DNA of 62,193 nucleotides from Lentisphaerota bacterium (GTDB lineage Bacteria; Verrucomicrobiota; Lentisphaeria; Victivallales; Victivallaceae): contig SUWH01000011.1 of assembly GCA_015061605.1 (NCBI GenBank), forward strand, positions 1 through 62,193, in the 5' to 3' direction. Positions 6,584 to 61,604 of the stretch are shown here, in pieces. Within the stretch, counting starts at the first letter, position 1, and each line of letters starts with the position of its first letter. The notes under the pieces were generated by a model. The model saw only the letters and a list, made by a program, of their open reading frames with translations, searched no databases and had not been told where the DNA came from. A program made the position numbers and the translations under genes.

Positions 6584-6865
6584 CACAGATATCCCATAAT
6601 TTTTCAAAAAGCGGGTATTCTCTCTGCATTCAAGCGAGAGAAATTTGATTTTTGAAAAAGTGATTTTGGCAGATTTTCCTGCCCGAAGCAGTTCGCTCGA
6701 AACTGCCTGTTTCCAGTCGGCGGATGCAGTGCGAGGCAAGGTCGGGTTTTGCAAGCGAGAAGCGAGGGGAGTGTACGATTGTACTCGACCCGAGCGGCGA
6801 GCGAAGCAAGGCGCGAGATTGCCCGCAATGCGCCGCCGTCGGTTGTTTTTTATGAGACAGCTGTG
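6584..6865 (+). mobile_element. MITE-like element, copy A
   Basis: 282 bp. The left end is CACAGATATCCCATAATTTT and the right end (reverse complement) is CACAGCTGTCTCATAAAAAA, an imperfect inverted pair. The flanks are CATTGCAAT on the left and CATTGCAGT on the right, a 9-bp direct repeat with one mismatch. The inside is rich in short palindromes and has no credible coding frame. The rest of the 6487-7042 gap holds only leader sequence for the two flanking genes; I see no other gene there. Confidence 0.8.
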
Positions 6866-7042
6866 CATTGCAGTACAAAACTCCGGATAAAGTTTATCTC
6901 GGCACTTGCAATTAAGTAAACAGAGGTTACATTAAATCAAAACCGTTTACACCGGTCTTTCTGAAAAAGTTGTCCCGCCGGGAACAAGGCGCAGTGTATA
7001 TTGACCCTATAAAACAACCAAACTCTGAAATCTGAAATAATT

Positions 7043-8587
7043 ATGATCCACATAACTGAAAAAATCGTTTTGCTTGACGGGATTTGTACCTTTATAGACT
7101 TTGAGCTTGATGCTTTCTGTCAGCTGGATATTGAACTTGAACTGGAGTCTGCGGCAACTCTGGATATTGCTCTGGGCGAAGTAACTTCCGGGAACCGGGT
7201 AGATCGTAACCCGGGCGGCTATCGCATTGTCCGCCTTATGTCAAAAGAGTGCCCCACCGGAAAAAGCTCTTTTGCTTTTGATCTGCCACGTCATAAATCC
7301 CCTTATGCCAATTCAACCAGCGTTCCCCTGCCTCCGGAAGCAGGCAATCGGGAAATCGTTCCGTTCCGCTATGTAGAAATTCTTGGCGGCAAAGGCAAAG
7401 CCAAACTTATCCGCAAGGCTTTTTATGGAGATTTTGATGACAACGCTGCCGATTTTGTTTGCGATAACATCCAACTCAACCGGATCTGGCAATTCTGCAA
7501 ATACACCATGAAAGCTACTTCAGCTTTCGGTTATTACATTGATGGCGAGCGGGAGCGGCAGCCTTATGAAGGCGACGCCTTGAGCAATCTTTTAGGAGAC
7601 CTTTGCTGCGGTGGTTCGGCGAATACTGCCAAACGCACCATTGACTGGCTTTTGAAAGTGCCGACCTGGTTCAACGAGTGGCAGCTGATTACCGCTATAT
7701 TGGTGCGGGATTATCTGCTCTACTCCAATGATCATGCCAGTGTAAACAAATGGCTGCCCCAACTGGAAAAACATATAGCAAAGTTTTCTCTGGAAGAGAA
7801 TAATCTGCTGCGTGATGCCACACCGGAAGAAACAGCCCAACGCCTCCCGCGGGACTTGATCGACTGGCCGCGGGGAGAACGGGATGGTTATGAACTTGGC
7901 AAATTCAACTTAACTCCCAACTGCTACTATTTTAAAGCTATGCAGGTAATGTATGAGCTTACCGGCAAAAACGAATACTCCATTGCAGCCCAAAAAGTCA
8001 AAAACGCCATTCTGAAAAATTTCCGCAACGGCGAAAAGTTTATCGACAGTATCGGCAGCAGCCACACGGCACTGCACAGCTTGCTTTATCCGGCATACTT
8101 CAAGATCGCCGATTTAAGCGAAAACATGAAAAACTCTCTGATCGCCAAAGGTATGTCGTGCAGTGTTTATACTGCTCACTTCCTTTTAGAATACTGTTTT
8201 GACAACGGTCTGGTGGAGCACGCATACAATTTGCTTTTAAGCAATTGCCTCAGAAGCTGGAACAACATGCTCAACAAGGGTGCCACCATTACCATGGAAG
8301 CGTGGGATGATACATTGAAACCCAATCAGGATTGGAACCATGCCTGGGGAGCGGCCCCCGCCAACCTTATACCACGCTGCATAGCTGGCATCAAACCGCT
8401 GGAACCGGGTTTCAAACGTTTTGCAGTAACTCCCCATCCGGGCAAGCTCAAGGAGTTTTACTGCAAACACCCCACTCCATACGGAGCAATCGAGTTGGAG
8501 TACAAACAAGGTAAATACCGCCTGACCAAACCGGCAGAGTGCTTTGCCGAATTTGAGCAAAGTCTGGATATAGAAGTTATTTCCTGA
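7043..8587 (+). CDS. GH78-like (alpha-L-rhamnosidase family) glycoside hydrolase
   Basis: 514 residues with no signal peptide, so probably cytosolic. A short beta-domain (1-125) precedes an (alpha/alpha)6-barrel. The catalytic-region signature YYIDGERERQPYEGD (~165-177) aligns with the GH78 D-x-P-x-R-x-E-R-x-G-W-x-G-D motif. ITMEAWDDTLKPNQDWNHAW near 415-435 supplies the second acidic residue and the conserved H-x-W. The end (IAGIKPLEPGFKRFAVTPHP) is the usual GH78 C-terminal beta-domain. Family members remove terminal rhamnose. It is shorter than typical GH78 enzymes (about 900 residues) because the N-terminal carbohydrate-binding modules are missing, so substrate preference may differ. The ribosome site is weak. 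Confidence 0.78.
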   Translation: MIHITEKIVLLDGICTFIDFELDAFCQLDIELELESAATLDIALGEVTSGNRVDRNPGGYRIVRLMSKECPTGKSSFAFDLPRHKSPYANSTSVPLPPEAGNREIVPFRYVEILGGKGKAKLIRKAFYGDFDDNAADFVCDNIQLNRIWQFCKYTMKATSAFGYYIDGERERQPYEGDALSNLLGDLCCGGSANTAKRTIDWLLKVPTWFNEWQLITAILVRDYLLYSNDHASVNKWLPQLEKHIAKFSLEENNLLRDATPEETAQRLPRDLIDWPRGERDGYELGKFNLTPNCYYFKAMQVMYELTGKNEYSIAAQKVKNAILKNFRNGEKFIDSIGSSHTALHSLLYPAYFKIADLSENMKNSLIAKGMSCSVYTAHFLLEYCFDNGLVEHAYNLLLSNCLRSWNNMLNKGATITMEAWDDTLKPNQDWNHAWGAAPANLIPRCIAGIKPLEPGFKRFAVTPHPGKLKEFYCKHPTPYGAIELEYKQGKYRLTKPAECFAEFEQSLDIEVIS

Positions 8588-8690
8588 ATTTAATCTGTCC
8601 TGACATCACGGAGATGATCAATCGTCGCTCTGCGAGCTATGGCGGGACAGGCAGAGCAGCAAATACCCCGTTTTTCTCGAAAGAGGTGGG

Positions 8691-9050
8691 TATTGGTTTG
8701 CACAGCAAACCAATATGAAGCGCAGGATAAATCCTGCATGAAGCATTGCTTCGCAATGTGAAGCTTTTTGCCTGCGGCAAAAGTGAAGCGCTCGCTTGCG
8801 TGAGTAAGGATATGATAAATTATTTGAGGATGTGAAGAGACGGATTGCATCCGTCGTGAAGCATTGCTTCGCAATGTGAAGCTTTTGCCTGCGGCAAAGT
8901 GAAGCGCTCGCTTGCGCGAGTAAGGATATGATAAATTATTTGAGGATGTGAAGAGACGGATTGCATCCGTCGTGAAGCATTGCTTCGCAATGTGAAGCTT
9001 TTTGCCTGCGGCAAAAGTGAAGCGCTCGCTTGCGCGAGTAAGGATATGAT
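8691..9050. repeat. Tandem array of short hairpins separated by TGAAG
   Basis: Perfect or near-perfect palindromes are joined by TGAAG: ATTGGTTTG/CAAACCAAT, GCAGGAT/ATCCTGC, CATTGC/GCAATG, TTTTGCC/GGCAAAA, GCGCTCGC/GCGYGAG and ACGGAT/ATCCGT. A composite unit starting TGAAGCATTGC repeats at 8739, 8857 and 8973 (118, 116 and ~78 bp). The middle unit has lost one T and one A on opposite arms of the same hairpin, which keeps the stem paired. It is not CRISPR: there are no unique spacers and no cas genes. The 8588-9434 gap contains no gene. Confidence 0.75.
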
Positions 9051-9069
9051 AAGTTTTATTTAATAAAAC

Positions 9070-9262
9070 CACAGACATCTTACAAAAAACAACGGACGGC
9101 GGCGTCTCGCGGCCAATCTCGCGCCTTGCTGCGCTCGCCTCGCAGGTCACATACGTGAGTATGCTCCCCGCTCTTCTTGCTTGCAAAACACGACATTGCC
9201 GCACGATCCATCCGCCGATTGCATCATCCGTTTTTTTAGCACGGCGTAAAATGTCGGAGCGG
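9070..9262 (-). mobile_element. MITE-like element, copy D (truncated)
   Basis: It starts CACAGACATCTTACAAAAAA and runs nearly identical to copy E (61284-61604) through the shared core. The core includes TCACATACGTGAGTATGC and GCTTGCAAAACACGACATTG. Homology ends after AAAATGTCGG near 9257-9262, so about 130 bp and the other terminal repeat are missing. No second copy of the flanking TAATAAAAC is found to the right. Confidence 0.65.
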
Positions 9263-9298
9263 CAAAATACCTCGCTTTTTTCGAAAGGGGTGGGGTGC

Positions 9299-9346
9299 GG
9301 GGAGGGGAAAACCTTTTTTCACGGGAAAAAAGGTTTTCCCCTCCCC
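9299..9346. repeat. 21-bp perfect-stem hairpin
   Basis: Arms GGGGAGGGGAAAACCTTTTTT (9299-9319, 21 bp in all) and its exact complement (9326-9346) flank the six-base loop CACGGG. It lies between the truncated MITE and the terminator of the pyruvate:ferredoxin oxidoreductase gene. It has no proper T-tract after it in either direction, so it is unlikely to be that gene's main terminator. Confidence 0.7.
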
Positions 9347-9353
9347 GCAATAC

Positions 9354-9391
9354 CATAAAAAAATCCCCTCACAGTTAAGCGAGGGGATTTT
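9354..9391 (-). terminator. Rho-independent terminator of the PFOR gene
   Basis: On the minus strand ATCCCCTC (complement of 9381-9388) pairs with GAGGGGAT (complement of 9363-9370) around a 10-base loop, followed by a run of T. It lies about 45 bases after the stop codon at 9435. Confidence 0.85.
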
Positions 9392-9434
9392 TCGTATTCA
9401 CCGCCGGGATTTCCGGCGGGGAGAGGTGGAAATC

Positions 9435-12400
9435 TTACATGATTTCGCCCATCTTCTTGAAGAATTCCATACGACGTTTGGCGTCGGCTTCAGCTTCGGC
9501 AAAGATGCCTTCAGCTTCGGCAGGAGCTTTCTTCAGCAGCTGACGGTAACGGTTTTCACCTTTGAGGAATTCCTGGAAGTCGCCGGTGGCGTCTTTGGTT
9601 TCCCAGGTGAAGGGTTTTTCCGCAGTCGGGTTGTAGCGGTAGAGCGGCCAGTAGCCGGCTTCCACAGCGCGTTTGGCTTCTTCCTGGCTCTTGGTCATGT
9701 TGATACCATGGAGCATACAGGGAGCGTAGGCGAAGATGATGGACGGACCGTTGTAGGCTTCCGCTTCCTTGATGGCGGCGAGAGTCTGCTGACGGTTGGC
9801 ACCCATAGCGATGCTGGCGACGTAGACGTTGCCGTAGCTCATGCACATGAAACCGATGTTCTTCTTGGTCAGACGCATACCGGATGCCGCGAAGAGGGCG
9901 ATCGCACCGATCGGGGTGGACTTGGAAGCCTGTCCGCCGGTGTTGGAGTAGATTTCGGTGTCAAGGACGAGGATGTTGACGTTGCGGTTCTGGGAAACAA
10001 CGTGATCCAGACCGCCGTAACCGATATCGTAGGCCCAGCCGTCACCGCCGAGGATCCAGACGGACTTATCGACGAAGTAGTCTTTAAGTTCGAGCATCTT
10101 GGCGTAGTTTTCCTTGGCTTCGCCGGTGGATTTTTCGACCGCGATCGGGAGGATCTCGCCGAGTTTGGTCTGGTTGGCGATAGCGGCATCATCGGTTTTG
10201 TCCCAGTTGGCGACAGCGTAATCGAGAGCGGCTTTCATCTGATCGCAGCAGATGCCCAGGGCATAAGCTTTGTCGATGCAGTTTTTGAGCATCTTACGAT
10301 TGTTGTCGACAGCGACACGCATACCGAAACCGTATTCAGCGTTGTCTTCAAAGAGGCTGTTCGCCCAGGCGGGACCGCGGCCTTTTTTGTCCTGGCAATA
10401 GGGCAGGCTCGGGAAGGAACCGCCGTAGATACTGCTGCAGCCGGTGGCGTTGGCAACGATCATGCGGTTACCGAAGAGCTGGGAAACCAGACGGACATAC
10501 GGAGCTTCGCCGCAACCGGCGCAGGCACCGCTGAATTCAAAGTACGGCTGCTTGAAGCCGACACCCTTGACGTTGGCATCAGTGAGGCCGCCCATTTCAT
10601 CATCGGGAAGCGCGGTGAAGAAGTCCAGATTGGCCTGCTGTCCGGCGGCGCGTTCACCGGCGGCGCTGACCATGCTGATGGCTTTATCTTTGACCGGGCA
10701 GGTTTCGACGCAGACGCCGCAGCCGAGGCAGTCATCAACGTAGACCTGAAGACGGAACTTCAAACCCAGTTCTTTCTTGACCGGCGGTTTGGCATCGACG
10801 GTTTCAAAGGTGGCAGGAGCAGCGGTAAGTTCAGCCGGCTGGATCAGTTTGGCGCGGATGGCAGCGTGCGGGCAAGCCATGACGCACTGGTTGCACTGGA
10901 TACATTTAGCGGAATCCCAGTGGGGAACTTTGGGCGCGACGCCGCGTTTTTCGAAGCGGGAGGTGCCGATGGGCATGGAGCCATCGTAGCTCATGGCGGA
11001 AACGGGGACAGTGTCACCTTTCTGCGCGAGAACCGGCTTCATCAGTTTGACAGCGAATTCGCCCATGTCAGCGGTGAAGGCTTCTTTCGGAGTGTAGCAG
11101 GCGCCGGGAGCGGCGGGGACATCGACCAGTTTCAAGCCGTCCAGAGCTTTGTCAACGCAGAGTTTGTTTTCATCGACAACAGCCTGACCTTTTTTGGCGA
11201 ACTTCTTCTCGATACCTTTTTTGATGTAGCCGATAGCTTCAGCTTCGGGGATGATTCCGGCGAGCTTGAAGAAGCAGGTCTGCATGATGGTGGAGATGTA
11301 TTTCGGGCTGCCGACTTCGACGGCGACCTTGAGAGCATCAACGACATAGAATTTGACTTTGCGGTCGATGATGGTCTTCTGCATATCGGCGGTCAGGGTT
11401 TCAAAAGCCTTGTCAGCCGGAGCAGAGGTGTTGAGCAGGAAGGTTCCGTTTTCTTTGATGCCGGAGATCATATCGTACATGCCGATATAAGCCGGGTTGT
11501 GGCAGGCGACGAAGTCGGGCGCGGTGATGAGATATTCACTGCGGATGGGGTTGTCACCGAAGCGCAGGTGGCTGATGGTGATACCGCCGGACTTCTTGGA
11601 GTCGTAGCTGAAGTAAGCCTGAACGTACTTGTCAGTGTTGTCACCGATGATGGCAACGGAGTTCTTGTTGGAACCGACAGTACCGTCGGAACCCAGACCC
11701 CAGAACATGCAGCTGGTGGTGCCGGCAGGTTCAGTGACGATGGTTTCTTCGATCGGCAGAGAGAGATGGGTGACATCGTCTTCGATACCGACGGTGAAGT
11801 TGTGGAAGCATTTTCCGTCGAGGTGCTTGTAGATGGCATAGACCATGGACGGAGTGAATTCCTTACTGGCAAGACCGTAGCGGCCGCCGATGATGGTGAG
11901 ATCGGCGCGGTCGGCGAAAGCGGCTTTGACGTCGAGGTAAAGCGGTTCACCGAGACAGCCGGGTTCTTTGGTACGGTCGAGGACGGCGATCTTTTTGCAA
12001 CTGGCAGGGAGAGCCGCTTTGATATGTTCGACCGAGAAGGGACGATACAGACGGACTTTGATAAGACCGACTTTTTCGCCTTTGGCGACGAGGTAATCGA
12101 GAGCTTCTTCGATGGTTTCGCAGCCGGAACCCATGGCGATGATGACCTTATCAGCATCGGGGGCACCGACATAGTCGAAGAGGTGCATCGGACGACCGGT
12201 CAAGCCGGCGACCTGATCCATATATTTCTGGACGATACCGGGCAGATCGAAGTAGATCTGGTTGGTGGTTTCGCGGCCCTGGAAGTAGACATCCGGGTTC
12301 TGGGCAGCCATTTTGGCATAGGGAGCTTCCGGACGGAGAGCGCGCTGACGGAAACGTTCGATATATTTCATATCGACGAGGCTCTTCATATCAGCATAGT

Positions 12401-12959
12401 CGAGAAGTTCGATCTTCTGGAATTCGTGAGAGGTACGGAAACCGTCGAAGAAGCTGAGGAAGGGAACTTCGCTTTCGAGGGTCGCGAGGTGGGCGACGAT
12501 GGCGAGGTCGTGGGTTTCCTGAATGCTGTTGGCGCTGGTCATGGCAAAACCGGTAGCGCGGCACGCCATAACGTCGGAGTGGTCACCGAAAATTGAGAGT
12601 GACTGCGCGGCAAGCGCACGGGCGGACACGTGGAAGACGGTCGGGAGCATTTCACCGGCGATCTTGTACATATTCGGGATCATCAGGAGCAAGCCCTGGC
12701 TGGCGGTGTAGGTGGTGGTGAGAGCACCTGCGCTCAAGCTGCCGTGGACGGCACCGGCGGCACCGGCTTCGGACTGCATTTCGACGACCTGCATCGGTTC
12801 GCCGAACATGTTCTTCATGTCGCGGCTTGCCCATTCGTCGGCGTATTCACCCATCGGTGAGGACGGGGTGATCGGGAAGATCGCCGCCACTTCGCTGAAG
12901 GCGTACGCAACGTAACTTGCTGCGTAGTTACCATCAATTGTCTGCATCTTTTTTCCCAT
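9435..12959 (-). CDS. nifJ: Pyruvate:ferredoxin (flavodoxin) oxidoreductase, single chain
   Basis: 1174 residues, the normal size for the homodimeric enzyme. It oxidises pyruvate with CoA to acetyl-CoA and CO2 and passes electrons to ferredoxin or flavodoxin; it is a central enzyme of anaerobic energy metabolism in the cytosol. The order is N-terminal pyruvate-binding domain (YAFSEVAAIFPITPSSPMGE), CoA-linked domains, and two 4Fe-4S clusters (CIQCNQCVMACP at 686-697, CLGCGVCVETCP at 744-755). The C-terminal TPP domain follows, with GACAGCGEAPY, GGDGWAYDIGYGGLDH and DTEIYSNTGGQ. I chose the ATG at 12959, not the one 15 bases upstream, because AAAGGAG ends 6 bases before it. It is a single-gene transcript with its own terminator at 9354-9391. 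Confidence 0.97.
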   Translation of the reverse strand: MGKKMQTIDGNYAASYVAYAFSEVAAIFPITPSSPMGEYADEWASRDMKNMFGEPMQVVEMQSEAGAAGAVHGSLSAGALTTTYTASQGLLLMIPNMYKIAGEMLPTVFHVSARALAAQSLSIFGDHSDVMACRATGFAMTSANSIQETHDLAIVAHLATLESEVPFLSFFDGFRTSHEFQKIELLDYADMKSLVDMKYIERFRQRALRPEAPYAKMAAQNPDVYFQGRETTNQIYFDLPGIVQKYMDQVAGLTGRPMHLFDYVGAPDADKVIIAMGSGCETIEEALDYLVAKGEKVGLIKVRLYRPFSVEHIKAALPASCKKIAVLDRTKEPGCLGEPLYLDVKAAFADRADLTIIGGRYGLASKEFTPSMVYAIYKHLDGKCFHNFTVGIEDDVTHLSLPIEETIVTEPAGTTSCMFWGLGSDGTVGSNKNSVAIIGDNTDKYVQAYFSYDSKKSGGITISHLRFGDNPIRSEYLITAPDFVACHNPAYIGMYDMISGIKENGTFLLNTSAPADKAFETLTADMQKTIIDRKVKFYVVDALKVAVEVGSPKYISTIMQTCFFKLAGIIPEAEAIGYIKKGIEKKFAKKGQAVVDENKLCVDKALDGLKLVDVPAAPGACYTPKEAFTADMGEFAVKLMKPVLAQKGDTVPVSAMSYDGSMPIGTSRFEKRGVAPKVPHWDSAKCIQCNQCVMACPHAAIRAKLIQPAELTAAPATFETVDAKPPVKKELGLKFRLQVYVDDCLGCGVCVETCPVKDKAISMVSAAGERAAGQQANLDFFTALPDDEMGGLTDANVKGVGFKQPYFEFSGACAGCGEAPYVRLVSQLFGNRMIVANATGCSSIYGGSFPSLPYCQDKKGRGPAWANSLFEDNAEYGFGMRVAVDNNRKMLKNCIDKAYALGICCDQMKAALDYAVANWDKTDDAAIANQTKLGEILPIAVEKSTGEAKENYAKMLELKDYFVDKSVWILGGDGWAYDIGYGGLDHVVSQNRNVNILVLDTEIYSNTGGQASKSTPIGAIALFAASGMRLTKKNIGFMCMSYGNVYVASIAMGANRQQTLAAIKEAEAYNGPSIIFAYAPCMLHGINMTKSQEEAKRAVEAGYWPLYRYNPTAEKPFTWETKDATGDFQEFLKGENRYRQLLKKAPAEAEGIFAEAEADAKRRMEFFKKMGEIM

Positions 12960-13018
12960 GATGTCTCCTTTCATTTCACAGGTTGATAAAAAAGAATTTA
13001 ACTTTTAAGTTTATTAAT

Positions 13019-13051
13019 AAACAAACGCAGGGAAGAATCATTCTCCCCTGC
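13019..13051 (-). terminator. Terminator of the pseudopilin gene 13066-13788
   Basis: On the minus strand GCAGGG, an internal GAGAATGATTCTT part and CCCTGC form a stem-loop. GTTTGTTTATT follows. It starts 15 bases past the stop codon at 13066. Confidence 0.7.
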
Positions 13052-13065
13052 AAAAAACCTTTATT

Positions 13066-13788: not shown

Positions 13789-13858
13789 ATCAAAATCCTT
13801 TCCTTTGTTCTTGATCCCCGAAAACCGGGAATAAGACATTTCACTTTGTCACTCAAAT

Positions 13859-13887: not shown

Positions 13888-13936
13888 GTCAAAACCTCGC
13901 TGTCAGATAAAAAATTATTTTAGTTTGTACAAAGAT

Positions 13937-14237
13937 CACAGCTGTCTCATAAAAAACAACCGACGGCGGCGCATTGCGGGCAATCTCGCGCCTTGCTTCG
14001 CTCGCCGCTTCCGGCTTCGTTACACTACGCCGCGACAAGCGGTCACCATGTAAGTCCACCCTGTCCCGCCGAAGCCTCGTGCGGAGGCGGATGCATCCGC
14101 CGACTGGAAACAGGCAGTTTCGAGTGCAACTGCTTCGGACAGGAAAATCTGCCAAAATCACTTTCTCAAAAATCAAATTTCTCTCGCTTGAATGCAGAGG
14201 GAATACCCGCTTTTTGAAAAATTATGGGATATCTGTG
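13937..14237 (-). mobile_element. MITE-like element, copy B, with exact 9-bp flanking repeat
   Basis: 301 bp, in reverse orientation to copy A. The left end is CACAGCTGTCTCATAAAAAA and the right end (reverse complement) is CACAGATATCCCATAATTTT. TACAAAGAT occurs immediately outside both ends (13928-13936 and 14238-14246), a perfect target-site duplication. The inner block carrying GAAACAGGCAGTTTCGAG is shared with copy A but not with C or E. No gene lies in the 13789-14353 gap. Confidence 0.85.
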
Positions 14238-14353
14238 TACAAAGATGAAAAAATCTTGCAGATTTGCAGAAAAATTTATTGAAAAACCGCTTTTCCGGCG
14301 TTAAAGTATAACAGAAGCACTATTTCAGCAAAAAAAGCAGGAGAAAATTCCTT

Positions 14354-15999: not shown

Positions 16000-16041
16000 T
16001 TCTCCGGGAAAATTAAAGTTGCCGCTTTTTTATCAAACAAC

Positions 16042-16070: not shown

Positions 16071-16124
16071 AAACAGCAAAACTGTATTAAGGTCATTATA
16101 TATAATAATACGGAGTATTTTATC

Positions 16125-29556: not shown

Positions 29557-29598
29557 ACTTAATTTAAACTGTTTCTTTACATTTTCAAGAACTCAATG

Positions 29599-29918
29599 CA
29601 CAGACATCCCATAATTTTTCAAAAAGCGGGTATTCCCTCTGCATTCAAGCGAGAGAAATTTGAATTTTGAAAAAGTGATTTTTGCAGATTTTGTTTTGCA
29701 CGGGCAAAACGTGCGTGCCGTCAGGCCGCACCACCATTTTACGCCGTGTTTAAAAAACGAATGATTCAATCGGCGGATGGATCGTGCGGCAATGTCGTGT
29801 TTTGCAAGCAAGAAGAGCGGGGAGCATACTCACGTATGTGACCCGCGAGGCGAGCGCAGCAAGGCGCGAGATTGGCCGCAATGCGCCGCCGTCCGTTGTT
29901 TTTTATGAGACAGCTGTG
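29599..29918 (+). mobile_element. MITE-like element, copy C, with exact 9-bp flanking repeat
   Basis: 320 bp. The left end is CACAGACATCCCATAATTTT; the right end (reverse complement) is CACAGCTGTCTCATAAAAAA. AACTCAATG occurs exactly outside both ends (29590-29598 and 29919-29927). The inner block (GGCAAAACGTGCGTGCCGTC, AATGATTCAATCGGCGG) is shared with E and differs from A and B. Apart from this, the hairpin at 29471 and two promoters, the 29380-30036 gap holds nothing I can identify. Confidence 0.87.
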
Positions 29919-29957
29919 AACTCAATGTTGAAAAACTGCCTTTTATAATCAGCAAGC

Positions 29958-43337: not shown

Positions 43338-43491
43338 ATTTGCCCCCTTGATTTTATCCATCCAACGATATATGTTATACACCAGAAAGCAGGTTTGTCT
43401 CGGAACAATTATGTTATTCGGGTCCATCTTCGGGCTTATTGTACGTCGTGTTGCCGCTGAGCGTACACCTGCTTTCTTTTTTTGTGTTCAC

Positions 43492-43608
43492 GGAGCGATC
43501 TCGCTTTGCCGGGCGGGCCTTGCGGCGCTCGATCCTCCAGTCACGTACGCAAGTACGCTCCTGTCGGTTCTCGCTTGCAAAACCCGCCCGGCTGTGCGAT
43601 ATCGCTCC
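43492..43608. repeat. Long hairpin with a core related to the MITE family
   Basis: GGAGCGATCTCGC-TTT-GCCGGGCGGG at the left pairs with CCCGCCCGGC-TGT-GCGATATCGCTCC at the right, enclosing about 65 bases. The enclosed part (CACGTACGCAAGTACGCTCC, GCTTGCAAAACCCG) parallels the MITE core (CACATACGTGAGTATGCTCC, GCTTGCAAAACACG), but the MITE ends are missing. It is the first block of the 43438-43890 repeat region; no gene lies in the 43338-43989 gap. Confidence 0.6.
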
Positions 43609-43633
43609 TGATTCCGGGCTGGCTGGAGTTTGC

Positions 43634-43889
43634 GCCTGTCGCCGGGCTGAAGCCCGGCAGGCGGATGGTAGTGTTTGATTCCGCCTGACGGCGGCTGTTG
43701 TGCCTGTTGTCGCGCCTCCGGCACGACAGGCAAGGTAGTGTTTATTCCGCCTGACGGCGGCTGTTGTGCCTGTTGTCGTGCCTCCGGCACGACAGGCAAG
43801 GTAGTGTTTTGTTCCGCCTGACGGCGGTTGTTATGGGTCGGACACGTCCGACCAGTCCGACCAGTCCGACTTGTCCGACTTGTCCGGAC
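43634..43889. repeat. 66-bp tandem hairpin array plus GTCCGAC repeats
   Basis: A partial unit at 43634 precedes units that start CCGCCTGACGGCGG at 43681, 43747 and (partial) 43814, with periods of 66 and 67 bp. Each full unit contains two hairpins: CCGCC/GGCGG, and GCCTGTTGTCGTGCC/GGCACGACAGGC. GTAGTGTTT separates units. From 43837 to 43889 a 9-bp unit, GTCCGAC plus two bases, is repeated four times after GTCGGACAC. There is no coding frame and no cas genes. Confidence 0.72.
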
Positions 43890-54552: not shown

Positions 54553-55763
54553 AAGAAAAACGTTTCCCGAAAGCCAATCTGCCGGAATATATCCAGCAGA
54601 TCGCTGATAAAATGAATACCTGTGAAGCAGATGTTCCCCCTTATCAGGCGTTGCCGTTGATCTCTGACCGCAAGGCAGTACTTAAAACCTTTGCCGATGA
54701 GATGTACGGTGAAATTCCTCCCGCGTGCGAAATGAAGCTCGTTACCAAAAATGAGGGCATCGTTTTCGGCGGTATCGGTATAAGAAAAGAGATCGATATG
54801 ATCTTTTCCAACAACGGTGTCGAACGCACTTTGCACATGCTGCTCTACATCCCGGCAAAACGGCAGAGGAAAGTTCCCTGCTTTTTCGGTTTGAACTTTC
54901 TCGGCAATATCGCCACCACGCATGATACGGAAGTGACCTTTTATCCATTCAGGCGTTATCAATCCGAATTTGTCTGGCACGCCGACCGCCGTGTGGAGGC
55001 AGGAGCTTACGGCGGCAAGGCTGACCGCTGGGATTTTGAAAAGGTGCTTAAAGCCGGATTTGCTTCGGCGACCATCTGCTGTTTTGACTGTTTTCCGGAT
55101 CATCCGGACGGCTTTGATGAAAGTATCCTGCCGCTGTTTTTCAGCCGCAAAGAGTGGGATGCCCCTGAACGCCGCTGTCCGGGCGCGATTTCCGCGTGGG
55201 CGTGGGGCTGTCTGCGCGCCGTGGATTGTCTGCTTCAACAGCCGGAGATCGACGGGGAAAGGATCATTGTCCACGGGCTTTCCCGTTTGGGAAAAACGGC
55301 ATTATGGGCAGGGGCAAACGATGAACGTATTGCGATGACGGTTTCGATTTGTTCTGGGTGCTGTGGAGCTAAAATGACCCGGCGGCACTTCGGAGAGGAT
55401 CTGGGCTGGCTGCTCTTCTGGCGGAAATACTGGTTTGTGCCGGGGATTTGCGATTTCATCGACCGCGATACGGAAGTACCTTACGATCAGCAGCAGCTTA
55501 TGGCGGCGATCGCCCCGCGCAAACTCTATGTCGCCAGTGCCGATCTGGATGAATTCGCCGACCCGTTGGGCGAATTTACCGCGACCAGACTTGCCGCCAA
55601 AGCATGGAAGAGTTCGCTTGCTTCGGCAGAATTTCCAGCCGCCGGAAACGGGGCAGGGGATGACAATGTCCGCTACTTCATGCGTAAAGGTGAACACAAC
55701 TGTACTCCGGAAAACTGGGACGATCTTCTCGCTCATGCCGGTAAAATATTTTTGAATGATTGA
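54549..55763 (+). CDS. CE15-like glucuronoyl esterase
   Basis: 404 residues, alpha/beta hydrolase, no signal peptide. HGLSRLGKTALWAGANDERI (242-261) matches the CE15 motif G-x-S-R-x-G-K, with Ser245 as nucleophile; the usual G-C-S-R reads G-L-S-R. SGCCGAKMTRRHFGEDL and the late GEHNCTPENW (catalytic His) also fit. CE15 enzymes split the ester between glucuronic acid of xylan and lignin alcohols. A cytosolic version acting on imported uronate esters would be unusual, so a related acyl esterase is the alternative. It overlaps the giant glycosidase gene by 4 bp and precedes the DUF4838 gene by 9 bp. Confidence 0.8.
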   Translation: MKEKRFPKANLPEYIQQIADKMNTCEADVPPYQALPLISDRKAVLKTFADEMYGEIPPACEMKLVTKNEGIVFGGIGIRKEIDMIFSNNGVERTLHMLLYIPAKRQRKVPCFFGLNFLGNIATTHDTEVTFYPFRRYQSEFVWHADRRVEAGAYGGKADRWDFEKVLKAGFASATICCFDCFPDHPDGFDESILPLFFSRKEWDAPERRCPGAISAWAWGCLRAVDCLLQQPEIDGERIIVHGLSRLGKTALWAGANDERIAMTVSICSGCCGAKMTRRHFGEDLGWLLFWRKYWFVPGICDFIDRDTEVPYDQQQLMAAIAPRKLYVASADLDEFADPLGEFTATRLAAKAWKSSLASAEFPAAGNGAGDDNVRYFMRKGEHNCTPENWDDLLAHAGKIFLND

Positions 55764-55772
55764 GGTTTATCT

Positions 55773-57500
55773 ATGGGAAACACCCTGAAACTTGCTGAAA
55801 AGGAGATGCGCCGCTACGGCTTTGAAGCAAAGCTCGTTATCGAAAAAGATCTCCCCGCTTTTGAATTGCGGAAAGTCAACGGTCAGATCATCATCGCCGC
55901 CCCATGTGAAGTAGAACTTCTTTACGGTGTTTATGATTTCGCTGAACGCTTCGGCGGCTGGAACTTCTTTGAAGTAGGAGTCGACCGTTACGATGAAACG
56001 CGCAAGATGAATGATTTACCGGATGGTGTTCTCTTTCCGGCAAAAGCTCCGCTGCTCAAGCGGCGGGGATTTATTCAGGAGTTCCCCTTTGACCACGAAA
56101 CGGAACAGCTCTTTGACTGGATGGCAAAAAATAAGCTCAACTATCTTCTGGTCTGGATGAAGTATTATGATAAACTCGCTCCGGAACTCAAGGAGTTTGC
56201 TCAACTGCGCGGCATTGAGATCGAAAGCGGTCACCATAACTTTGATTACTGGATCCCCGGTAAAGTTTACGGAAAGACCAACCCGGAATTTTTTGCCGAA
56301 ATCAACGGCAAACGTATCAATCCTTCCGGCGGCGACGGTCTTTTGTTGAGTGAGCAGTTGTGTACCACCAATCCTGCGCTGCGTCGTGAGATCGTGGCGA
56401 GAATGGTCGAATACTGCGCCAATCACCCCGAAGTAAAAACTATTTCTCTCATCCCCAATGACGGTTTCGGCTGGTGCGAATGTGAAAACTGTTCCAAATT
56501 TTATGATAAAAACAAAATGGGGGACTTTTACAGCGTTTCGGAACATGTCTACAAAGCCGATGTGATCTATCATGATCTGCTGCGTGAAGTGGCGGCAGAA
56601 CTGCAAAAGGTGCGCCCGGACATCCAGTTGACCTTCTGCGCTTACATCAACTACTGCGCGCCGTCACCGGGATTCAAACTTGAACGCGGCATGGCGGTCC
56701 ACATGGCAACTTACTGGCGGTGTATCAATCACACTCTGGAAGATGAAAATTGTCTTATCAATCCCCATTACGCCCGGGATATCCAAGCATGGTGCCGCGC
56801 CAAAAACGGCGGTGAAGTCAATGTTTACGAATACTTTATGGGAGTCAATTTCTATCTTTCATTGCCGATGCTCCATTTTGAGGAGATGTTCCACGAAATG
56901 GAACTTTATTCCAAGTGGGGCGTGGACGGCATACTGACCCAATTCCATGTGGCGCACTGGAGTGTTTACGGTGTCAATTACCGCTTGATGGCACAGGCGG
57001 CGCGCGGCGAGGATGCCGATGCTTCAATAAAAGGATTTTTCGTCGGACTTTTCGGCAAAGATGCCGCATCTGCCGAAGCATTTTACCGTGAAGTCAAAAA
57101 ACTTCTGCTCAATGCAGGTTTGTGCCATATACCTTATCCGGATTCACTTTTGCGCCGCATAAAAGTTGACGATTGCGAAAAATTGTTCAACACGGCACAG
57201 CAGCTTTCTTCACTTGCTCCGCAGGATAAATTCCGGCAGGATCTGGTCATCTGGATGGAATATCTGTTGCGCTTCAAGAAGTTTTATGACTTGAATGCTT
57301 CCGGCAATGCTTCCGTCAGCGATGTCGATGAATTACTCAATTGGATCCACCGTTTCCGCGACAGCCGGGTCTTTGTCCACAGCAAATATGATACCTATTT
57401 CGGACGTGTCAAAGAGGTGCTTGCCGAAAAGCGGCAATGGCTCCACTTTGACTTGGACTGGGAAGATAAATACATCCTGCGCCACCGCGAATTACTTTGA
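55773..57500 (+). CDS. DUF4838 protein, alpha-glucuronidase-like
   Basis: 575 residues, no signal peptide. LLYGVYDFAERFGGWNFFEV is the N-terminal GH67/GH20-like alpha/beta domain. VKTISLIPNDGFGWCECENC is the DUF4838 hallmark, in a TIM barrel with TYWRCINHTLEDENC and VYEYFMGVNF further on. DUF4838 is distantly related to alpha-glucuronidase GH67 and other GH families; no activity is firmly established. Linked to a CE15-like esterase, it may remove a uronic-acid side chain. GAGG precedes the ATG. It is the last gene of the locus that begins at 45422. Confidence 0.8.
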   Translation: MGNTLKLAEKEMRRYGFEAKLVIEKDLPAFELRKVNGQIIIAAPCEVELLYGVYDFAERFGGWNFFEVGVDRYDETRKMNDLPDGVLFPAKAPLLKRRGFIQEFPFDHETEQLFDWMAKNKLNYLLVWMKYYDKLAPELKEFAQLRGIEIESGHHNFDYWIPGKVYGKTNPEFFAEINGKRINPSGGDGLLLSEQLCTTNPALRREIVARMVEYCANHPEVKTISLIPNDGFGWCECENCSKFYDKNKMGDFYSVSEHVYKADVIYHDLLREVAAELQKVRPDIQLTFCAYINYCAPSPGFKLERGMAVHMATYWRCINHTLEDENCLINPHYARDIQAWCRAKNGGEVNVYEYFMGVNFYLSLPMLHFEEMFHEMELYSKWGVDGILTQFHVAHWSVYGVNYRLMAQAARGEDADASIKGFFVGLFGKDAASAEAFYREVKKLLLNAGLCHIPYPDSLLRRIKVDDCEKLFNTAQQLSSLAPQDKFRQDLVIWMEYLLRFKKFYDLNASGNASVSDVDELLNWIHRFRDSRVFVHSKYDTYFGRVKEVLAEKRQWLHFDLDWEDKYILRHRELL

Positions 57501-57720
57501 ACCGCGGTGGTTTTTTACCGCATTGTTACAGGGCAGAGAGGGCATCCTGTTTTACCACATCTTCCGGCAGCAGCATGGTGGTATTCAGCAGCGAGTACAG
57601 GGGCGGGACGGATGCCGGAAGTTCCGTCGCCTTTCTGGATGGGGAATTGTTTGCGGTAGATTTTTTCCAGAATGGCACTCAACTTCTTTGTTGCCGGATT
57701 GCAAATTTTATTCCCGGAAC

Positions 57721-57759
57721 ACAAATAAAAAAAACGGCAGAAGCACAAACTTCTGCCGT
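57721..57759 (-). terminator. Terminator of the FAD oxidoreductase transcript
   Basis: ACGGCAGAAG (57734-57743) and CTTCTGCCGT (57750-57759) flank CACAAA. Read on the minus strand, the stem is followed by eight or more T's. It lies 15 bases after the stop at 57774. Confidence 0.9.
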
Positions 57760-57773
57760 CGGGGATTTACCGG

Positions 57774-59054
57774 TTATTTATCAAAAATCGTATAGTGCAT
57801 CCCCGCAATTTTCTGCTGCAATGCTTTGATGTCTACCTTGCGGGTCGAACCGCTTTCGATAGCGGCACGGCAGGCGCATCCGGCGGCTTCGCCGATCGCC
57901 ATGCAGCTGGCGTTGATACGCGAAGATGAGTGTGCCACATGGTCGACCGAGATCGGGCGTCCGGCAATATAAAGGTTGTTGATGCCGCGCGGTGTGATAC
58001 AGCGGTAAGGGATACCATAGGGTTTTTCCAGCTTGTGTCCGCAGCCGCGGTGGATGCCGTCCGGGGTGTGGATATCGATCGCCCAGATCGCCTGCGCGAT
58101 CTCGTCTTCAAAATGGCGGTAGCTTTTGATGTCGCTTTCTGTAAGATAATAGTCACCCAGAATGCGGCGGGTTTCGCGGCAGCCGATCTGCGGAGCATAC
58201 TGGCTGATCCAGGCGTTTTCACAACCGGGGATCTCCTTGCGGAAGAATTCATAAACGAGATATTCCGCCTGTTTGACCGCTTCTCTGCGGATCCTTGTCA
58301 AATCTTCGGGGATGGTGCAGTCGCAGTTGATGACATGAGTCATGTTTACTGCGACTTCATTGGTTTTTTCCCCATGGGGGACAAACTGGAAAACGCTGTG
58401 GTCGATGGGGACGGGGCGTTCGACGCTCTTCCAGACCTTGCGGACATCCATATATGCCGGAAGTCTTTCCAGATCGATTCCGCCCATGATGAAAACAAGC
58501 GTGGAAGATTGAACTTTGCCGTCTTCGGGTCTGCCCTTTTCAAAGGGGCAGCCCGCCATTACCGCAAGATCTCCGTCGCCGGTGGCGTCGATGAAAACTT
58601 TTGCCGGGATGGCGGAAACTCCGGCTTTGTTGGCAACGACCGCATGAGTGATGATGCCATTGGCTGAAGCACAGCCGATGAGCTGGGTGTAGGAGTGGAA
58701 GTCGATTTTATAAAAGTCGATGATCTCCAGCAGAAATCCGGTCAGTGCTGGGGGTGTCAGATTGATATTGCTGCCGCCGCCCTGTTCTTTAGCGAGGTGG
58801 CGGTCGATGAGTTCGTTGGCAAAGGCGCGGGGGAAACCGGCGACAGCGACTTCATCGAGGCGGCTGTAACCGGAAATCGAACCGAGGCGGCCGCTTACGG
58901 GGATGCCGCCGGGTTCGCCGAAGTATTCAACGATACCGACTTTGAGACCATCCTGGGCGGCGGCGACGGCGGCGGAGATACCGCCCATTCCGGAACCGCA
59001 GACCAGTACATCGTATTCATATTTTGACAACGTCGGGGTGATGGAAATATTCAT
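57774..59054 (-). CDS. FAD-dependent oxidoreductase (FAD_oxidored family)
   Basis: 426 residues. The N-terminal dinucleotide site is VLVCGSGMGGISAAVAAAQD, then VGIVEYFGEPGG. KVFIDATGDGDLAVMAGCPF, IGCRETRRILGDYYLTESDI and the C-terminal NLYIAGRPISVDHVAHSSSR are typical of the family PF12831. The exact reaction is unknown; these enzymes are frequent in PVC genomes near glycan genes. I chose the ATG at 59054 with AAGGAAAG upstream. A longer in-frame start would overlap the neighbouring gene by 254 bases. It is 22 bp downstream of the trehalase-fold glycosidase gene. Confidence 0.88.
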   Translation of the reverse strand: MNISITPTLSKYEYDVLVCGSGMGGISAAVAAAQDGLKVGIVEYFGEPGGIPVSGRLGSISGYSRLDEVAVAGFPRAFANELIDRHLAKEQGGGSNINLTPPALTGFLLEIIDFYKIDFHSYTQLIGCASANGIITHAVVANKAGVSAIPAKVFIDATGDGDLAVMAGCPFEKGRPEDGKVQSSTLVFIMGGIDLERLPAYMDVRKVWKSVERPVPIDHSVFQFVPHGEKTNEVAVNMTHVINCDCTIPEDLTRIRREAVKQAEYLVYEFFRKEIPGCENAWISQYAPQIGCRETRRILGDYYLTESDIKSYRHFEDEIAQAIWAIDIHTPDGIHRGCGHKLEKPYGIPYRCITPRGINNLYIAGRPISVDHVAHSSSRINASCMAIGEAAGCACRAAIESGSTRKVDIKALQQKIAGMHYTIFDK

Positions 59055-59076
59055 GATATTTTCTTTCCTTAAAAAA

Positions 59077-60687
59077 TTAGCGCCATTCCGGATGGTTGAG
59101 CATTTCGATATAGAGTGTTCCGGACCAGCCGTAGTCGTGGAAGACCTGATGGAAAGGGTGGTAGGAACCGTCTTCAGTTTTGCCCTTGCGTTCCAGTTCG
59201 GGGGGAGTGAGTTCTTTGCGGTCATCGTGGAATTCAAAAAAGGTACCGAACTGCAAATAGAATTTCTCCTGTTCGCGCAGGGTGTCCTGAACGATCGACT
59301 TGGCAAGGTCATGGTAGCCGTAGCGTTCAAGGCCGAGGGCGATCATATAGTTGATATTGGTCCAGACCGGTCCGCGCCACATATCTTTTTTGTAGGCGGC
59401 GACATTTTTCTTTGCAATGGAAGGAACCCGCAACGGAGTACCGAAAGTTTCCGGATCAGTGAGGTGGGCAGCCATTTTTGCCGCCTGTTCTTTTGAGGCG
59501 GCTCCGCACAAAAGCGGCAGGAAGCCGGCACTGGACATCACATCGGTACGCTTGTTGGCGACAACATCAAAGTCCACATACAAATTGACTTCATTGCTCC
59601 AGAGCCGTTCATTCATAAGTTTGCACAATCTGGCGTGGTGAGCCATCCAGTAATCGCGTTTTCCGGGGATGAACATGGCAAGTGATTCGCATTCATAGGC
59701 GAGGAAAGCATTGAAGTCCGGCGCATCGAGCTGGGTGGCTCCGTCGAAACGCGGGGAGTTGTCCATGCCGCTTTCGCCGCTGCGGCAGTTGACATTTGCT
59801 TCGATCGCCCATTCCACCAATCCGGCTCCATCGGTGTCGCGGTTGGCAAAGATCCATTCGATATAACGTTCGAGTTTGGGGGCAAGTTCAGCGATCCATC
59901 CGGGGGAGGGGGATTGTTCGTTGATGGCACGCATTGCCAGAGAGAGTACCGGCGGCTGGGTGAGTTGAGGACGGTTGACCACCGGATCACCGGAGTGCGG
60001 GATCAAGCCGTCTTCATCCTGAATATCGAACATCGCGGAAATGAACTGTTTGGCAAGATCGACATTGAGGTGGCGCATCCCCAGAGCATGGAACGCTGAA
60101 TCCCAGAGCCACATTTTTTTGTGCGGCCAGCGGTCAGGGGTGCTCCATTTGCAGGAAATTCTGCCTTCCGGGGCGTAGGTTTGGGTTTTGATCTGGGAAA
60201 CCGCCTTGAGCAGAGTCTGGCGTGAGGCATCAGAAATATTTTCCGGGATCGGGGCGGAAGTGATGAATCTGCCGCGTTTGGCGATTTCGTCTTCGACATT
60301 CAGTTCCAGCAGAGCCGGATCGAAAAATCCTTTTCTGCCGATAAGCATTTTACCGTCTTTGCCGGCAATGTCATATTTGTCCTGCAGTTCAACGGAGAAG
60401 TCACCGTCCAGCAGCACATGGTAACTGTCGGGCAGCACGCCGCTTGAAACGGTTCCGTCTTCGCCGTAAAAACGGAAAAAGTCTCCGGTAAGTTCCAGTT
60501 TTTCCACTTCGCTTCCAGCGTAGCGGATGACCGGCGGAGTGGGGGTGTACGCTCCATCTTTTAACTGAATGACATATTTTTCAAATGCGGTACGCAGGCA
60601 CAGGCCGTTTTTGAAGTCGGTCTGACCATCGATCCCGGAAAAGGCGATCAGTTGGCCGCCTCCCCAGACTGCCGGGAATTTATTCAT
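59077..60687 (-). CDS. Trehalase-fold glycoside hydrolase (GH63/MGH1-like)
   Basis: 536 residues, no signal peptide. A short N-terminal beta-domain is followed by an (alpha/alpha)6 barrel: MWLWDSAFHALGMRHLN (W-D-S/W-x-F), IQDEDGLIPHSGDP, SGMDNSPRFDG (catalytic Asp), YKKDMWRGPVWTNINYMI, and the final HDYGWSGTLYIEM. This is the GH63 / mannosylglycerate-hydrolase-like pattern, so an alpha-glucoside, alpha-mannoside or related substrate is likely. I chose the ATG at 60687 (AAGGA 10 bases upstream) over an earlier in-frame start without a ribosome site. It is the first gene of a two-gene operon with the FAD oxidoreductase. Confidence 0.88.
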   Translation of the reverse strand: MNKFPAVWGGGQLIAFSGIDGQTDFKNGLCLRTAFEKYVIQLKDGAYTPTPPVIRYAGSEVEKLELTGDFFRFYGEDGTVSSGVLPDSYHVLLDGDFSVELQDKYDIAGKDGKMLIGRKGFFDPALLELNVEDEIAKRGRFITSAPIPENISDASRQTLLKAVSQIKTQTYAPEGRISCKWSTPDRWPHKKMWLWDSAFHALGMRHLNVDLAKQFISAMFDIQDEDGLIPHSGDPVVNRPQLTQPPVLSLAMRAINEQSPSPGWIAELAPKLERYIEWIFANRDTDGAGLVEWAIEANVNCRSGESGMDNSPRFDGATQLDAPDFNAFLAYECESLAMFIPGKRDYWMAHHARLCKLMNERLWSNEVNLYVDFDVVANKRTDVMSSAGFLPLLCGAASKEQAAKMAAHLTDPETFGTPLRVPSIAKKNVAAYKKDMWRGPVWTNINYMIALGLERYGYHDLAKSIVQDTLREQEKFYLQFGTFFEFHDDRKELTPPELERKGKTEDGSYHPFHQVFHDYGWSGTLYIEMLNHPEWR

Positions 60688-60727
60688 AGCTTTAAAATCC
60701 TTTAATTTTATTGCAGGTTCCATACTT

Positions 60728-60762
60728 TTACATAATGTAATTGACAAGCCGGATCATTGCAA
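60728..60762 (-). promoter_or_regulatory. Promoter with palindrome over the -10 box, for 59077-60687
   Basis: On the minus strand TTGCAA (60757-60762), 17 bases, TACATT (60734-60739). TTACATAATGTAA (60728-60740) is a perfect 13-bp palindrome over the -10 box. The layout parallels the regulator promoter at 45364-45401, but the palindromes differ in spacing, so a shared regulator is not shown. Confidence 0.5.
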
Positions 60763-60911
60763 GAATAAAAACAGATTATTGCGTTTGATATCTTATCAAA
60801 GATGTTCGTTTTTTTATCACATTACGAAACCGGAAATACCTTCCGGGGGCAAAATAATTTTTCTGCGTGGAAAAATCCGTGGAAAAAATCATATTTTTTC
60901 ACGCACAGGTA

Positions 60912-60940
60912 TTGACAAAAGAAGTTTTTGGCAGTATATT
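60912..60940 (+). promoter_or_regulatory. Promoter for the tRNA-Asn genes (TTGACA-N17-TATATT)
   Basis: TTGACA (60912-60917), 17 bases, TATATT (60935-60940), 17 bases before the first tRNA nucleotide. It is preceded by the hairpin CGTG-G-AAAAAA-N5-TTTTTT-CACG at 60878-60903. Confidence 0.85.
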
Positions 60941-60957
60941 AAACAATGTTACAACGC

Positions 60958-61032
60958 TCCGGCATAGCTCAGCGGTAGAGTAGGTGGCTGTTAACCACTT
61001 GGTCCTTGGTTCGAATCCAAGTGCCGGAGCCA
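60958..61032 (+). tRNA. tRNA-Asn (GTT), copy 1
   Basis: 75 nt with encoded CCA. The acceptor arm is TCCGGCA/TGCCGGA with G as discriminator. The anticodon loop CTGTTAA gives GTT, and the T-loop is TTCGAAT. The D arm has GCTC/GAGT with one G-T pair. The promoter is at 60912-60940. Confidence 0.96.
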
Positions 61033-61089
61033 TTTTTTTGGATATTCCGGTTGTAGCGGTCCTGACACGGACTTGAAAAGTGTTTTTGC

Positions 61090-61164
61090 TCCGGCATAGC
61101 TCAATGGTAGAGTAGGTGGCTGTTAACCACTTGGTTCCTGGTTCGAGCCCAGGTGCCGGAGCCA
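61090..61164 (+). tRNA. tRNA-Asn (GTT), copy 2
   Basis: 75 nt with encoded CCA. It is nearly identical to copy 1 and 57 bp downstream; the few differences are in the D loop (CAATGG for CAGCGG), variable loop and T arm. Probably a tandem duplication transcribed from the same promoter. Confidence 0.96.
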
Positions 61165-61283
61165 TTTTCATTTTAAACGAATTCCCCCCTCTTTCAGATA
61201 GAATCCCTCTTTAACATGCAAAGATGTATTCGATGATCTGGTTTACAAAGTATATCTGCTGACTGTTCACCACAATTTTTGAA

Positions 61284-61604
61284 CACAAACATCTCATAAA
61301 AAACAACGGGCGGCGGCGCCTCGTGACCAATCTCGCGCCTTGCTGCGCTCGCCTCGCGGGTCACATACGTGAGTATGCTCCCCGCTATTCTTGCTTGCAA
61401 AACACGACATTGCCGCACGATCCATCCGCCGATTGCATCATCCGTTTTTTTAGCACGGCGTAAAATGTCGGTGCGGCCTGACGGCACGCACGTTTTGCCT
61501 GGGCAAAACAGAATCTGCCAAAATCACTTTTTCAAAATTCAATTTTTCTTTTGCTGAAAAATTTGAGGGAACGGATGTTTTTCTTATTTTATGGGACAGC
61601 TGTG
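61284..61604 (-). mobile_element. MITE-like element, copy E
   Basis: 321 bp. The left end is CACAAACATCTCATAAAAAA; the right end (reverse complement) is CACAGCTGTCCCATAAAATA. Flanks ATTTTTGAA (61275-61283) and CTTTTTGAA (61605-61613) form a 9-bp direct repeat with one mismatch. The inner block is shared with C and D. Between 61605 and 61817 I see no gene or repeat. Confidence 0.8.

What the first reader, a model, noticed from the sequence alone, without database searches (positions are those of the whole stretch)
6584..61604. A MITE family with 9-bp target duplications and modular insides
Copies at 6584-6865, 13937-14237, 29599-29918 and 61284-61604 have matching inverted ends (CACA(G)..TC.CATAA). 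Each is flanked by a 9-bp direct repeat: CATTGCAAT/CATTGCAGT, TACAAAGAT (exact), AACTCAATG (exact), ATTTTTGAA/CTTTTTGAA. A truncated copy is at 9070-9262. None encodes a protein. A and B share one inner block; C, D and E share another; all share a palindromic core. The end CAGATATCCCATAATTTT loosely resembles the IS10 end (..AGAGATCCCCTCATAATTTC), and IS10 also makes 9-bp duplications. An IS4-family transposase in trans is therefore an inference.
Basis: partly seen in the sequence, partly recalled or inferred. Interest (0 to 1): 0.75.

Follow-up and report, generated by a model that had tools for sequence, protein, structure and literature searches.

The report
IS4-type MITE carrying shared hairpin core
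A gut bacterium's genome is dotted with small protein-free jumping elements that appear to borrow the machinery of a known transposon type, and inside them they carry a folded hairpin that a second kind of jumping element also carries.

Summary
Copies A-D sit at the stated coordinates with 9-bp flanking repeats (B, C exact; A, D 8 of 9); E is truncated. The genome has 145 end-motif matches against 7 for the reversed pattern. Of 37 two-ended copies with both flanks, 20 have an exact and 28 a <=1-mismatch 9-bp duplication (mismatched pairs: 1 and 14 of 1332).

The IS4 inference is supported; the IS10 link is not. A congener shows nine left and nine right ends of one long element with these ends; 7 of 9 left flanks have an exact 9-bp partner, and its right end carries a transposase start. 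Of 38 related IS4-family loci examined, 13 have CAC-type ends and exact 9-bp duplications, 12 of them with one open YREK transposase frame, including Oligosphaera ethanolica and Lentisphaera marina. No such intact IS was found in the window's own draft genome.

New: the 120-bp palindromic core occurs in 21 of 34 genomes of the genus, varies with compensatory changes, and also sits in a second MITE family with other ends and, most likely, 8-bp duplications. Its role is open.

The parts
6584..6865 (+). MITE copy A (282 bp); flanking repeats 6575-6583 and 6866-6874 (8 of 9)
6718..6838 (+). core hairpin of copy A
   Evidence: model R1 127 bits; -68.7 kcal/mol as RNA
13937..14237 (-). MITE copy B (301 bp); flanking repeats 13928-13936 and 14238-14246 (exact)
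13964..14102 (-). core of copy B with its apical part replaced
   Evidence: model R1 15.8 bits, E 0.1; alignment
29599..29918 (+). MITE copy C (320 bp); flanking repeats 29590-29598 and 29919-29927 (exact)
29771..29891 (+). core hairpin of copy C
   Evidence: model R1 115 bits
29599..29697 (+). left arm of copy C, 83% identical over 99 bases to an end of the IS in congener G011
61284..61604 (-). MITE copy D (321 bp) with the second left-arm type; flanking repeats 61275-61283 and 61605-61613 (8 of 9)
61311..61431 (-). core hairpin of copy D
   Evidence: model R1 116.8 bits
9070..9262 (-). truncated copy E: right end and core, left arm missing
9097..9217 (-). core hairpin of copy E
   Evidence: model R1 114 bits
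43491..43609 (-). diverged core without recognised MITE ends
   Evidence: model R1 54.5 bits

Best explanation
The repeats are non-autonomous elements (MITEs), mostly 270-380 bp, moved by an IS4-family DDE transposase supplied in trans. The transposase is inferred to act on the ends CACAG-N-YRTCYCATAA and to insert mostly at AT-rich sites with a 9-bp staggered cut. The left arm of A, B and C descends from the end of such an IS that lies opposite the transposase start. The interior is a captured module: a 120-bp hairpin that also sits in a second MITE family with other ends (GGTAATGTCCC...GACAATAAC) and, most likely, 8-bp duplications. Shown: ends, duplications, copy number, an IS-like element with such ends and duplications in a congener, full-length relatives with an IS4-family transposase, the shared core with compensatory changes. 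Inferred: mobilisation in trans, capture of the core by the 9-bp family from the 8-bp family, past or present activity.
For: Exact 9-bp repeats in 20 of 37 two-ended copies against 1 of 1332 mismatched pairs. Congener G011: nine left and nine right ends, one sequence each over 118 bases; 7 of 9 left flanks have an exact 9-bp partner, 0 after shifts of 1-5 bases. Its right end reads into a start MNPQEHNMAVLGQ (my reading), like the N-termini in G012 and G019. G013 transposase P0002: NF033592 IS4 208 bits, cut-off 115; PF01609 88.8 bits; D-67-D-127-E and YREK. 13 of 38 related loci examined have CAC-type ends with exact 9-bp duplications, 12 of these one open frame of 406-465 codons, all 13 the YREK motif. 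Left arm 83% identical to the G011 IS end. Core in 21 of 34 congeners, covariation 31 double-change cells against 11.8 shuffled, core also in the second family.
Against: No intact IS of this clade in the own assembly: two PF01609 matches (one with stops, one below the cut-off), one diverged P0002 match with stops, no promoter-type end among 132 ends seen (one search lists 100 of 145). The interior of the G011 element is not assembled, so its transposase is read from 13 codons. 9 of 37 copies lack a good duplication. 25 of 38 related loci gave no clean 9-bp result. No movement was observed and no exact empty site shown.
Confidence: 0.88

Rival explanations
1. An IS10-subgroup (Tn10-like) transposase moves the elements, as the loose end likeness suggests.
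Against: IS10-subgroup ends begin CT in that table; these begin CA. The relatives with such ends have another IS4-family transposase, though it was not placed in a tree with IS10.
Confidence: 0.03
2. The core hairpin is itself a small mobile palindrome (REP-like) that inserted into both MITE families, rather than passing from one family to the other.
For: Cores also occur without recognised ends (32 of 88 distinct cores unlabelled; window 43491-43609) and side by side in some loci (L101, L151, L192).
Against: Core and flank labels rest on a right-end pattern, so unlabelled cores may sit in other or decayed ends. No boundary or duplication of the core itself was found. A-type cores of family 1 are close to family-2 cores of G003 (0.041) and one of this genome (0.083), as transfer would give.
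Confidence: 0.25
3. The compensatory changes come from correction within palindromes (template switching or conversion), not from selection on a folded RNA or DNA.
For: Such correction is expected in long quasi-palindromes (recalled). The number of further pair types does not exceed shuffles (22 against 20.7, 141 of 500 as high).
Against: Three other covariation measures exceed all 500 shuffles, and slid structures give far less; but related sequences can exceed such shuffles, and the structure was derived from the same alignment.
Confidence: 0.45
4. The IS110-family element found inside some copies is the driver of the repeats.
For: A composite of 1818 bp with an exact 9-bp duplication, and one split over contigs C14/C35.
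Against: The IS110 lies inside the core, was seen in only these two copies of this genome, and in relatives lies in unrelated sites, CT at the junctions. IS110 elements make no such duplication (recalled).
Confidence: 0.02

Closest known systems
IS4 family, IS4Sa subgroup (De Palmenaer 2008, PMC2266710; passages and Table 1 seen)
   Same: Related full-length elements: ends CA with T at position 9, 9-bp duplications, 1444-1550 bp, YREK, DDE spacing within the family range.
   Different: Subgroup not confirmed by a tree; the MITEs themselves have no transposase.
MITEAba12 with ISAba12 (PMC6382973, passages seen)
   Same: Small element without a gene, 9-bp duplications, parent inferred from shared ends and duplication length.
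   Different: 113 bp, likeness to the IS limited to the ends, only weak predicted folding; here the left arm keeps about 100 bases of the IS and a strong hairpin core is shared with another family.
Correia/NEMIS and other bacterial MITEs (PMC2229807, passages seen)
   Same: Small, highly structured repeats, many between genes; size forms that differ by an inner block.
   Different: Mostly TA at the termini; the passages seen describe no core shared by two families with different duplication lengths.
MIC231-type mobile cassettes of IS4-family IS231 (search listing only)
   Same: Non-autonomous derivatives of an IS4-family element (recalled).
   Different: IS231 subgroup: other ends and 10-12 bp duplications.

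Membership tests
Bacterial MITE | Terminal inverted repeats, short, no transposase gene | tested here: met
Bacterial MITE | Target-site duplication of fixed length | tested here: met
   9 bp: 20 of 37 exact, 0 at 8 bp, 1 at 10 bp
Bacterial MITE | Many copies in the genome | tested here: met
   145 end matches against 7; 38 two-ended copies paired
Bacterial MITE | Ends shared with an autonomous parent | tested here: met
   in relatives; no intact parent found in the own assembly
Bacterial MITE | Empty sites in related strains | tested here: inconclusive
   neighbour genes of copy C kept in G029, no MITE match listed there, junction not alignable
IS4 family (partner element) | DDE transposase with Y-(2)-R-(3)-E-(6)-K and D(60-110)D(100-150)E | tested here: met
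   P0002 D-67-D-127-E, YREK; YREK in 13 of 13
IS4 family (partner element) | Duplication of about one helix turn | tested here: met
   exact 9 bp in 13 of 38 loci examined and 7 of 9 pairs in G011
IS4Sa subgroup (partner element) | Ends CA------T, 8-10 bp duplication, 1150-1750 bp | tested here: met
IS4Sa subgroup (partner element) | Transposase grouping with IS4Sa members in a tree | not tested
   no subgroup-labelled reference set was used
IS10 subgroup (partner element) | Ends beginning CT, 9-bp duplication | tested here: not met
   ends begin CA; only the duplication length agrees

The most novel reading that the evidence does not exclude
The 120-bp core is a functional nucleic-acid cargo, a folded RNA or DNA hairpin kept by selection, that passes between different transposition systems (one making 9-bp, one making 8-bp duplications) and so spreads through a whole bacterial genus independently of any one transposase.
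Probability: 0.3. Interest if true: 0.7.

Novelty: new variant of a known kind. Interest (0 to 1): 0.45.

Why it matters
Bacterial MITEs with an identifiable parent are known. A structured core shared by two MITE families with different duplication lengths would show that MITE cargo can evolve apart from MITE ends. Dozens of copies per genome in many related species make a natural data set for asking whether the hairpin is selected, and what for. The duplications also pair broken contig ends of these draft genomes.

Tried and rejected
One search lists 100 of 145 end matches, so some ends with 1-2 mismatches were never seen.

An IS4-family remnant with ends CACTGCTGTCCGGTAAAAATT (G000:C38, G008, G011, G021) looked like the parent at first. 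It was dropped: its ends differ at several positions, and the two end pairs seen (C38, G008) show no 9-bp repeat. The transposase remnant at C52:38340-38645 lies outside the copy beside it.

Family 2 first looked like 9-bp from single cases; over 25 places 8 bp fits best. The element boundaries were picked from 24 offsets, and 13 of 25 places have a 9-bp match with one mismatch at another offset, so 8 bp is likely, not certain. No IS with family-2 ends turned up among fetched loci. Rfam finds only two tRNAs in the window. Structure prediction and fold search were not used.

In one search the 1818-bp composite was let in by its known length. In one search I left out three ends by hand: those of contigs C33 and C18, and the low end of C14. 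In one search the labels rest on the right end; 32 of 88 cores got none, and I read no support values. My note 4 counts L280 as exact 9-bp; one search shows an ambiguous 11-bp reading there, and the report does not count it.
Full report
Observation. All coordinates hold. A, B, C and D have matching inverted ends and 9-bp flanking repeats (B and C exact, A and D 8 of 9). E has lost its left arm, and no partner repeat was found for it. The copies lie in spacers between the long ORFs; seven short ORFs overlapping A, B, D and E match no Pfam family at E 0.01. The core model scores 114-127 bits in A, C, D and E, only 15.8 bits in B, where the apical part is replaced, and 54.5 bits at a further diverged core at 43491-43609.

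Copy number and duplications. The window lies in a draft genome of 2.56 Mb, 52 contigs, 88.7% complete. Copy C gives 56 and copy B 51 BLAST matches. The end motif CACARNYRTCYCATAAWW with up to 2 mismatches gives 145 matches against 7 for the reversed pattern. On the fetched stretches I found 132 ends, 124 with at most 2 mismatches. They pair into 38 two-ended copies; one lacks a flank. Of the other 37, 20 have an exact and 28 a <=1-mismatch 9-bp repeat; 9 have 2-5 mismatches. None is exact at 8 bp, one at 10 bp. Mismatched left/right pairs give 1 exact and 14 near matches of 1332. The left 9-mers are 81% A+T. Copy B was not in that set and is exact. Many copies break contigs about 127 bp inside the element, probably an assembler word size (inference). 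Of 13 left ends at contig termini, 8 have an exact and 3 a one-mismatch 9-bp partner among 15 right ends at other termini (three ends left out by hand).

The parent. Of 60 genomes searched by BLAST with copy C, 20 match, all among the 34 of the genus and none of the 26 outside it; many matches cover only the core. Congener G011 has nine left ends and nine right ends, one sequence each over the 118 bases compared, each about 121-126 bp from a contig end. Seven of nine left flanks have an exact 9-bp partner among the right flanks, none after shifts of 1-5 bases. So G011 holds about nine copies of one long element with these ends and 9-bp duplications. By my reading its right end carries a promoter-like stretch, a ribosome-binding site and the start MNPQEHNMAVLGQ. 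G012 shows a similar end and a start that runs further; G019, G003 and G013 show related ends and N-termini. In G013 the frame continues as an IS4-family transposase (P0002, 411 codons, N-terminus cut by the contig end): NF033592 208 bits, cut-off 115; PF01609 88.8 bits; D115-67-D183-127-E311 and a full YREK motif. In the other genomes the two-mismatch end motif is mostly near its control level.

Full-length relatives. One scan of GTDB contigs with P0002 gave 127 relatives, 80 kept. I looked for ends and duplications in 38 of the 80. Thirteen have CAC-type ends with an exact 9-bp duplication: Oligosphaera ethanolica 3 of 6 loci (1550 bp, CACAGCCGTCCCATAACT / CACAGCCGTCCCATAGTC), Lentisphaera marina 3 of 4 (1444 bp, CACAGTCATCCCATAAGA / CACAATCATCCCATAAAT), and seven others labelled Phycisphaerae, Planctomycetota, Spartobacteria, Verrucomicrobiia, Kiritimatiellia, Verrucomicrobiota and Verrucomicrobiaceae. 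Two more have CAC-type ends with another reading (L280, 11 bp; L286, 8 bp with a mismatch). The other 23 gave nothing or chance-like pairs. Twelve of the thirteen have one open frame of 406-465 codons, L344 only 325; all thirteen have YREK.

Subgroup. Table 1 of De Palmenaer 2008 (PMC2266710, passages seen) gives IS4Sa as CA------T, 8-10 bp, 1150-1750 bp, and IS10 as CT, 9 bp. The partner fits IS4Sa and not IS10. It was not placed in a tree.

Descent. Bases 1-99 of copy C are 83% identical to the G011 end that lies opposite the transposase start, so the left arm of A, B and C descends from an IS 3' end. The own assembly shows no intact IS of this clade: PF01609 gives two matches, one with stops and one below the cut-off, P0002 one diverged match with stops, and no promoter-type end is among the 132 ends. 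The IS may be lost, or hidden in the missing part.

The core. The inner 121 bp fold into one long hairpin (-68.7 kcal/mol for A, -67.7 for C). In 12 sequences from 11 genomes, 94.8% of cells keep a 37-pair structure. Eleven pairs change on both sides in some sequence; 31 cells carry such changes against 11.8 in shuffles (0 of 500 as high) and at most 7 when slid. The number of further pair types does not exceed shuffles (22 against 20.7). The structure came from the same alignment, and palindrome correction can also make such changes, so this is not proof of selection. The model matches in 21 of 34 genomes of the genus, up to 103 matches in one; four of the 21 have only 1-3. A palindrome can match on both strands and at most 106 candidates per genome were scored, so these are not copy numbers.

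A second carrier. In sister species, and in this genome (L158, L198), the same core sits in elements of mostly about 276 bp with ends GGTAATGTCCCAAATTTTGTGA and, read inward, GTTATTGTCTCATTTSTTGTGA. Of 25 distinct places 21 have the core inside. Over all 25 the best length is 8 bp: 11 exact, none in 600 mismatched pairs; with the core, 9 of 21, none in 420. Exact 9-bp repeats number at most 3 of 25. Boundaries were chosen from 24 offsets. Family 1 with fixed ends shows the opposite (20 exact at 9, 0 at 8), so two different machineries are likely. In a tree of 88 distinct cores the core of copy A lies 0.041 substitutions per site from a family-2 core of G003 and 0.083 from one of this genome; the other two family-2 cores of this genome are at about 0.2. 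Family-1 labels occur in this genome (18), G003 (2) and G031 (1), family-2 labels in 12 genomes; 32 cores carry neither label. The simplest reading is that family 1 took the core from family 2. This is inference.

Composites. An IS110-family element (NF033542 215.5 bits, cut-off 140) sits in the core of a copy on contig C3 (1818 bp, exact duplication) and of one split over C14/C35; G003 has a similar right junction (L365). The C3 composite joins a left half of one interior type to a right half of another (my reading), so recombination at such insertions could shuffle interiors. Other IS110 copies lie in unrelated sites.

Empty sites. Congener G029 keeps genes beside copy C (79% identity over the downstream gene, 67-77% over parts of the upstream one), with no MITE match listed in the spacer, but the spacer does not align at the junction.

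Literature. In the open-licence library, searches for Lentisphaerae with MITE and insertion sequence (one paper, on Porphyromonas), MITE with IS4 family (six listed), Victivallales with transposable element (none), palindromic MITEs (five listed), MIC231, MITEs with different inverted repeats and the same interior (none) and Oligosphaera with insertion sequence (none) listed nothing that describes these elements. I judged by titles and abstract starts except for passages of PMC6382973, PMC2229807 and PMC2266710.

Verdict. The MITE alone is a new member of a known kind. The shared, covarying core in two MITE families that differ in ends and probably in duplication length makes it a new variant, and the role of the core is the open question.

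Noticed in passing
window 43491-43609 (-): A sixth, diverged core hairpin without recognised MITE ends, next to a tandem repeat (43667-43832, unit 66 bp).
   Followed up: partly
window 8739-9052: Tandem array, unit 116 bp, 2.7 copies, of hairpin-like segments just beside truncated copy E; similar sequence flanks an IS110 copy elsewhere in the genome (L382).
   Followed up: no
window 61802-62193: Tandem repeat with a 185-bp unit, 2.1 copies, running to the window's end.
   Followed up: no
window 60958-61164: Two tRNA-Asn (GTT) genes in tandem shortly before copy D.
   Followed up: no
L033:245-2062 (C3:37144-38961); L063, L037: IS110-family elements inserted in the MITE core; the C3 composite joins two interior types, a possible route for shuffling insides.
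   Followed up: partly
L047:174-1165 (C38:98673-99664): Degenerate IS4-family element with another end type (CACTGCTGTCCGGTAAAAATT), also seen in G008, G011 and G021.
   Followed up: partly
L077:973-1021 (C14:973-1021): A 49-bp near-perfect palindrome made of two MITE-type left ends back to back.
   Followed up: no
contig ends of G000 and G011: Exact 9-bp duplications pair broken contig ends (8 of 13 left ends in G000, 7 of 9 in G011), which could help scaffold such drafts.
   Followed up: yes
L200-L207 (G016): All nine distinct core copies labelled for G016 carry neither end type; a third kind of end is possible there.
   Followed up: no
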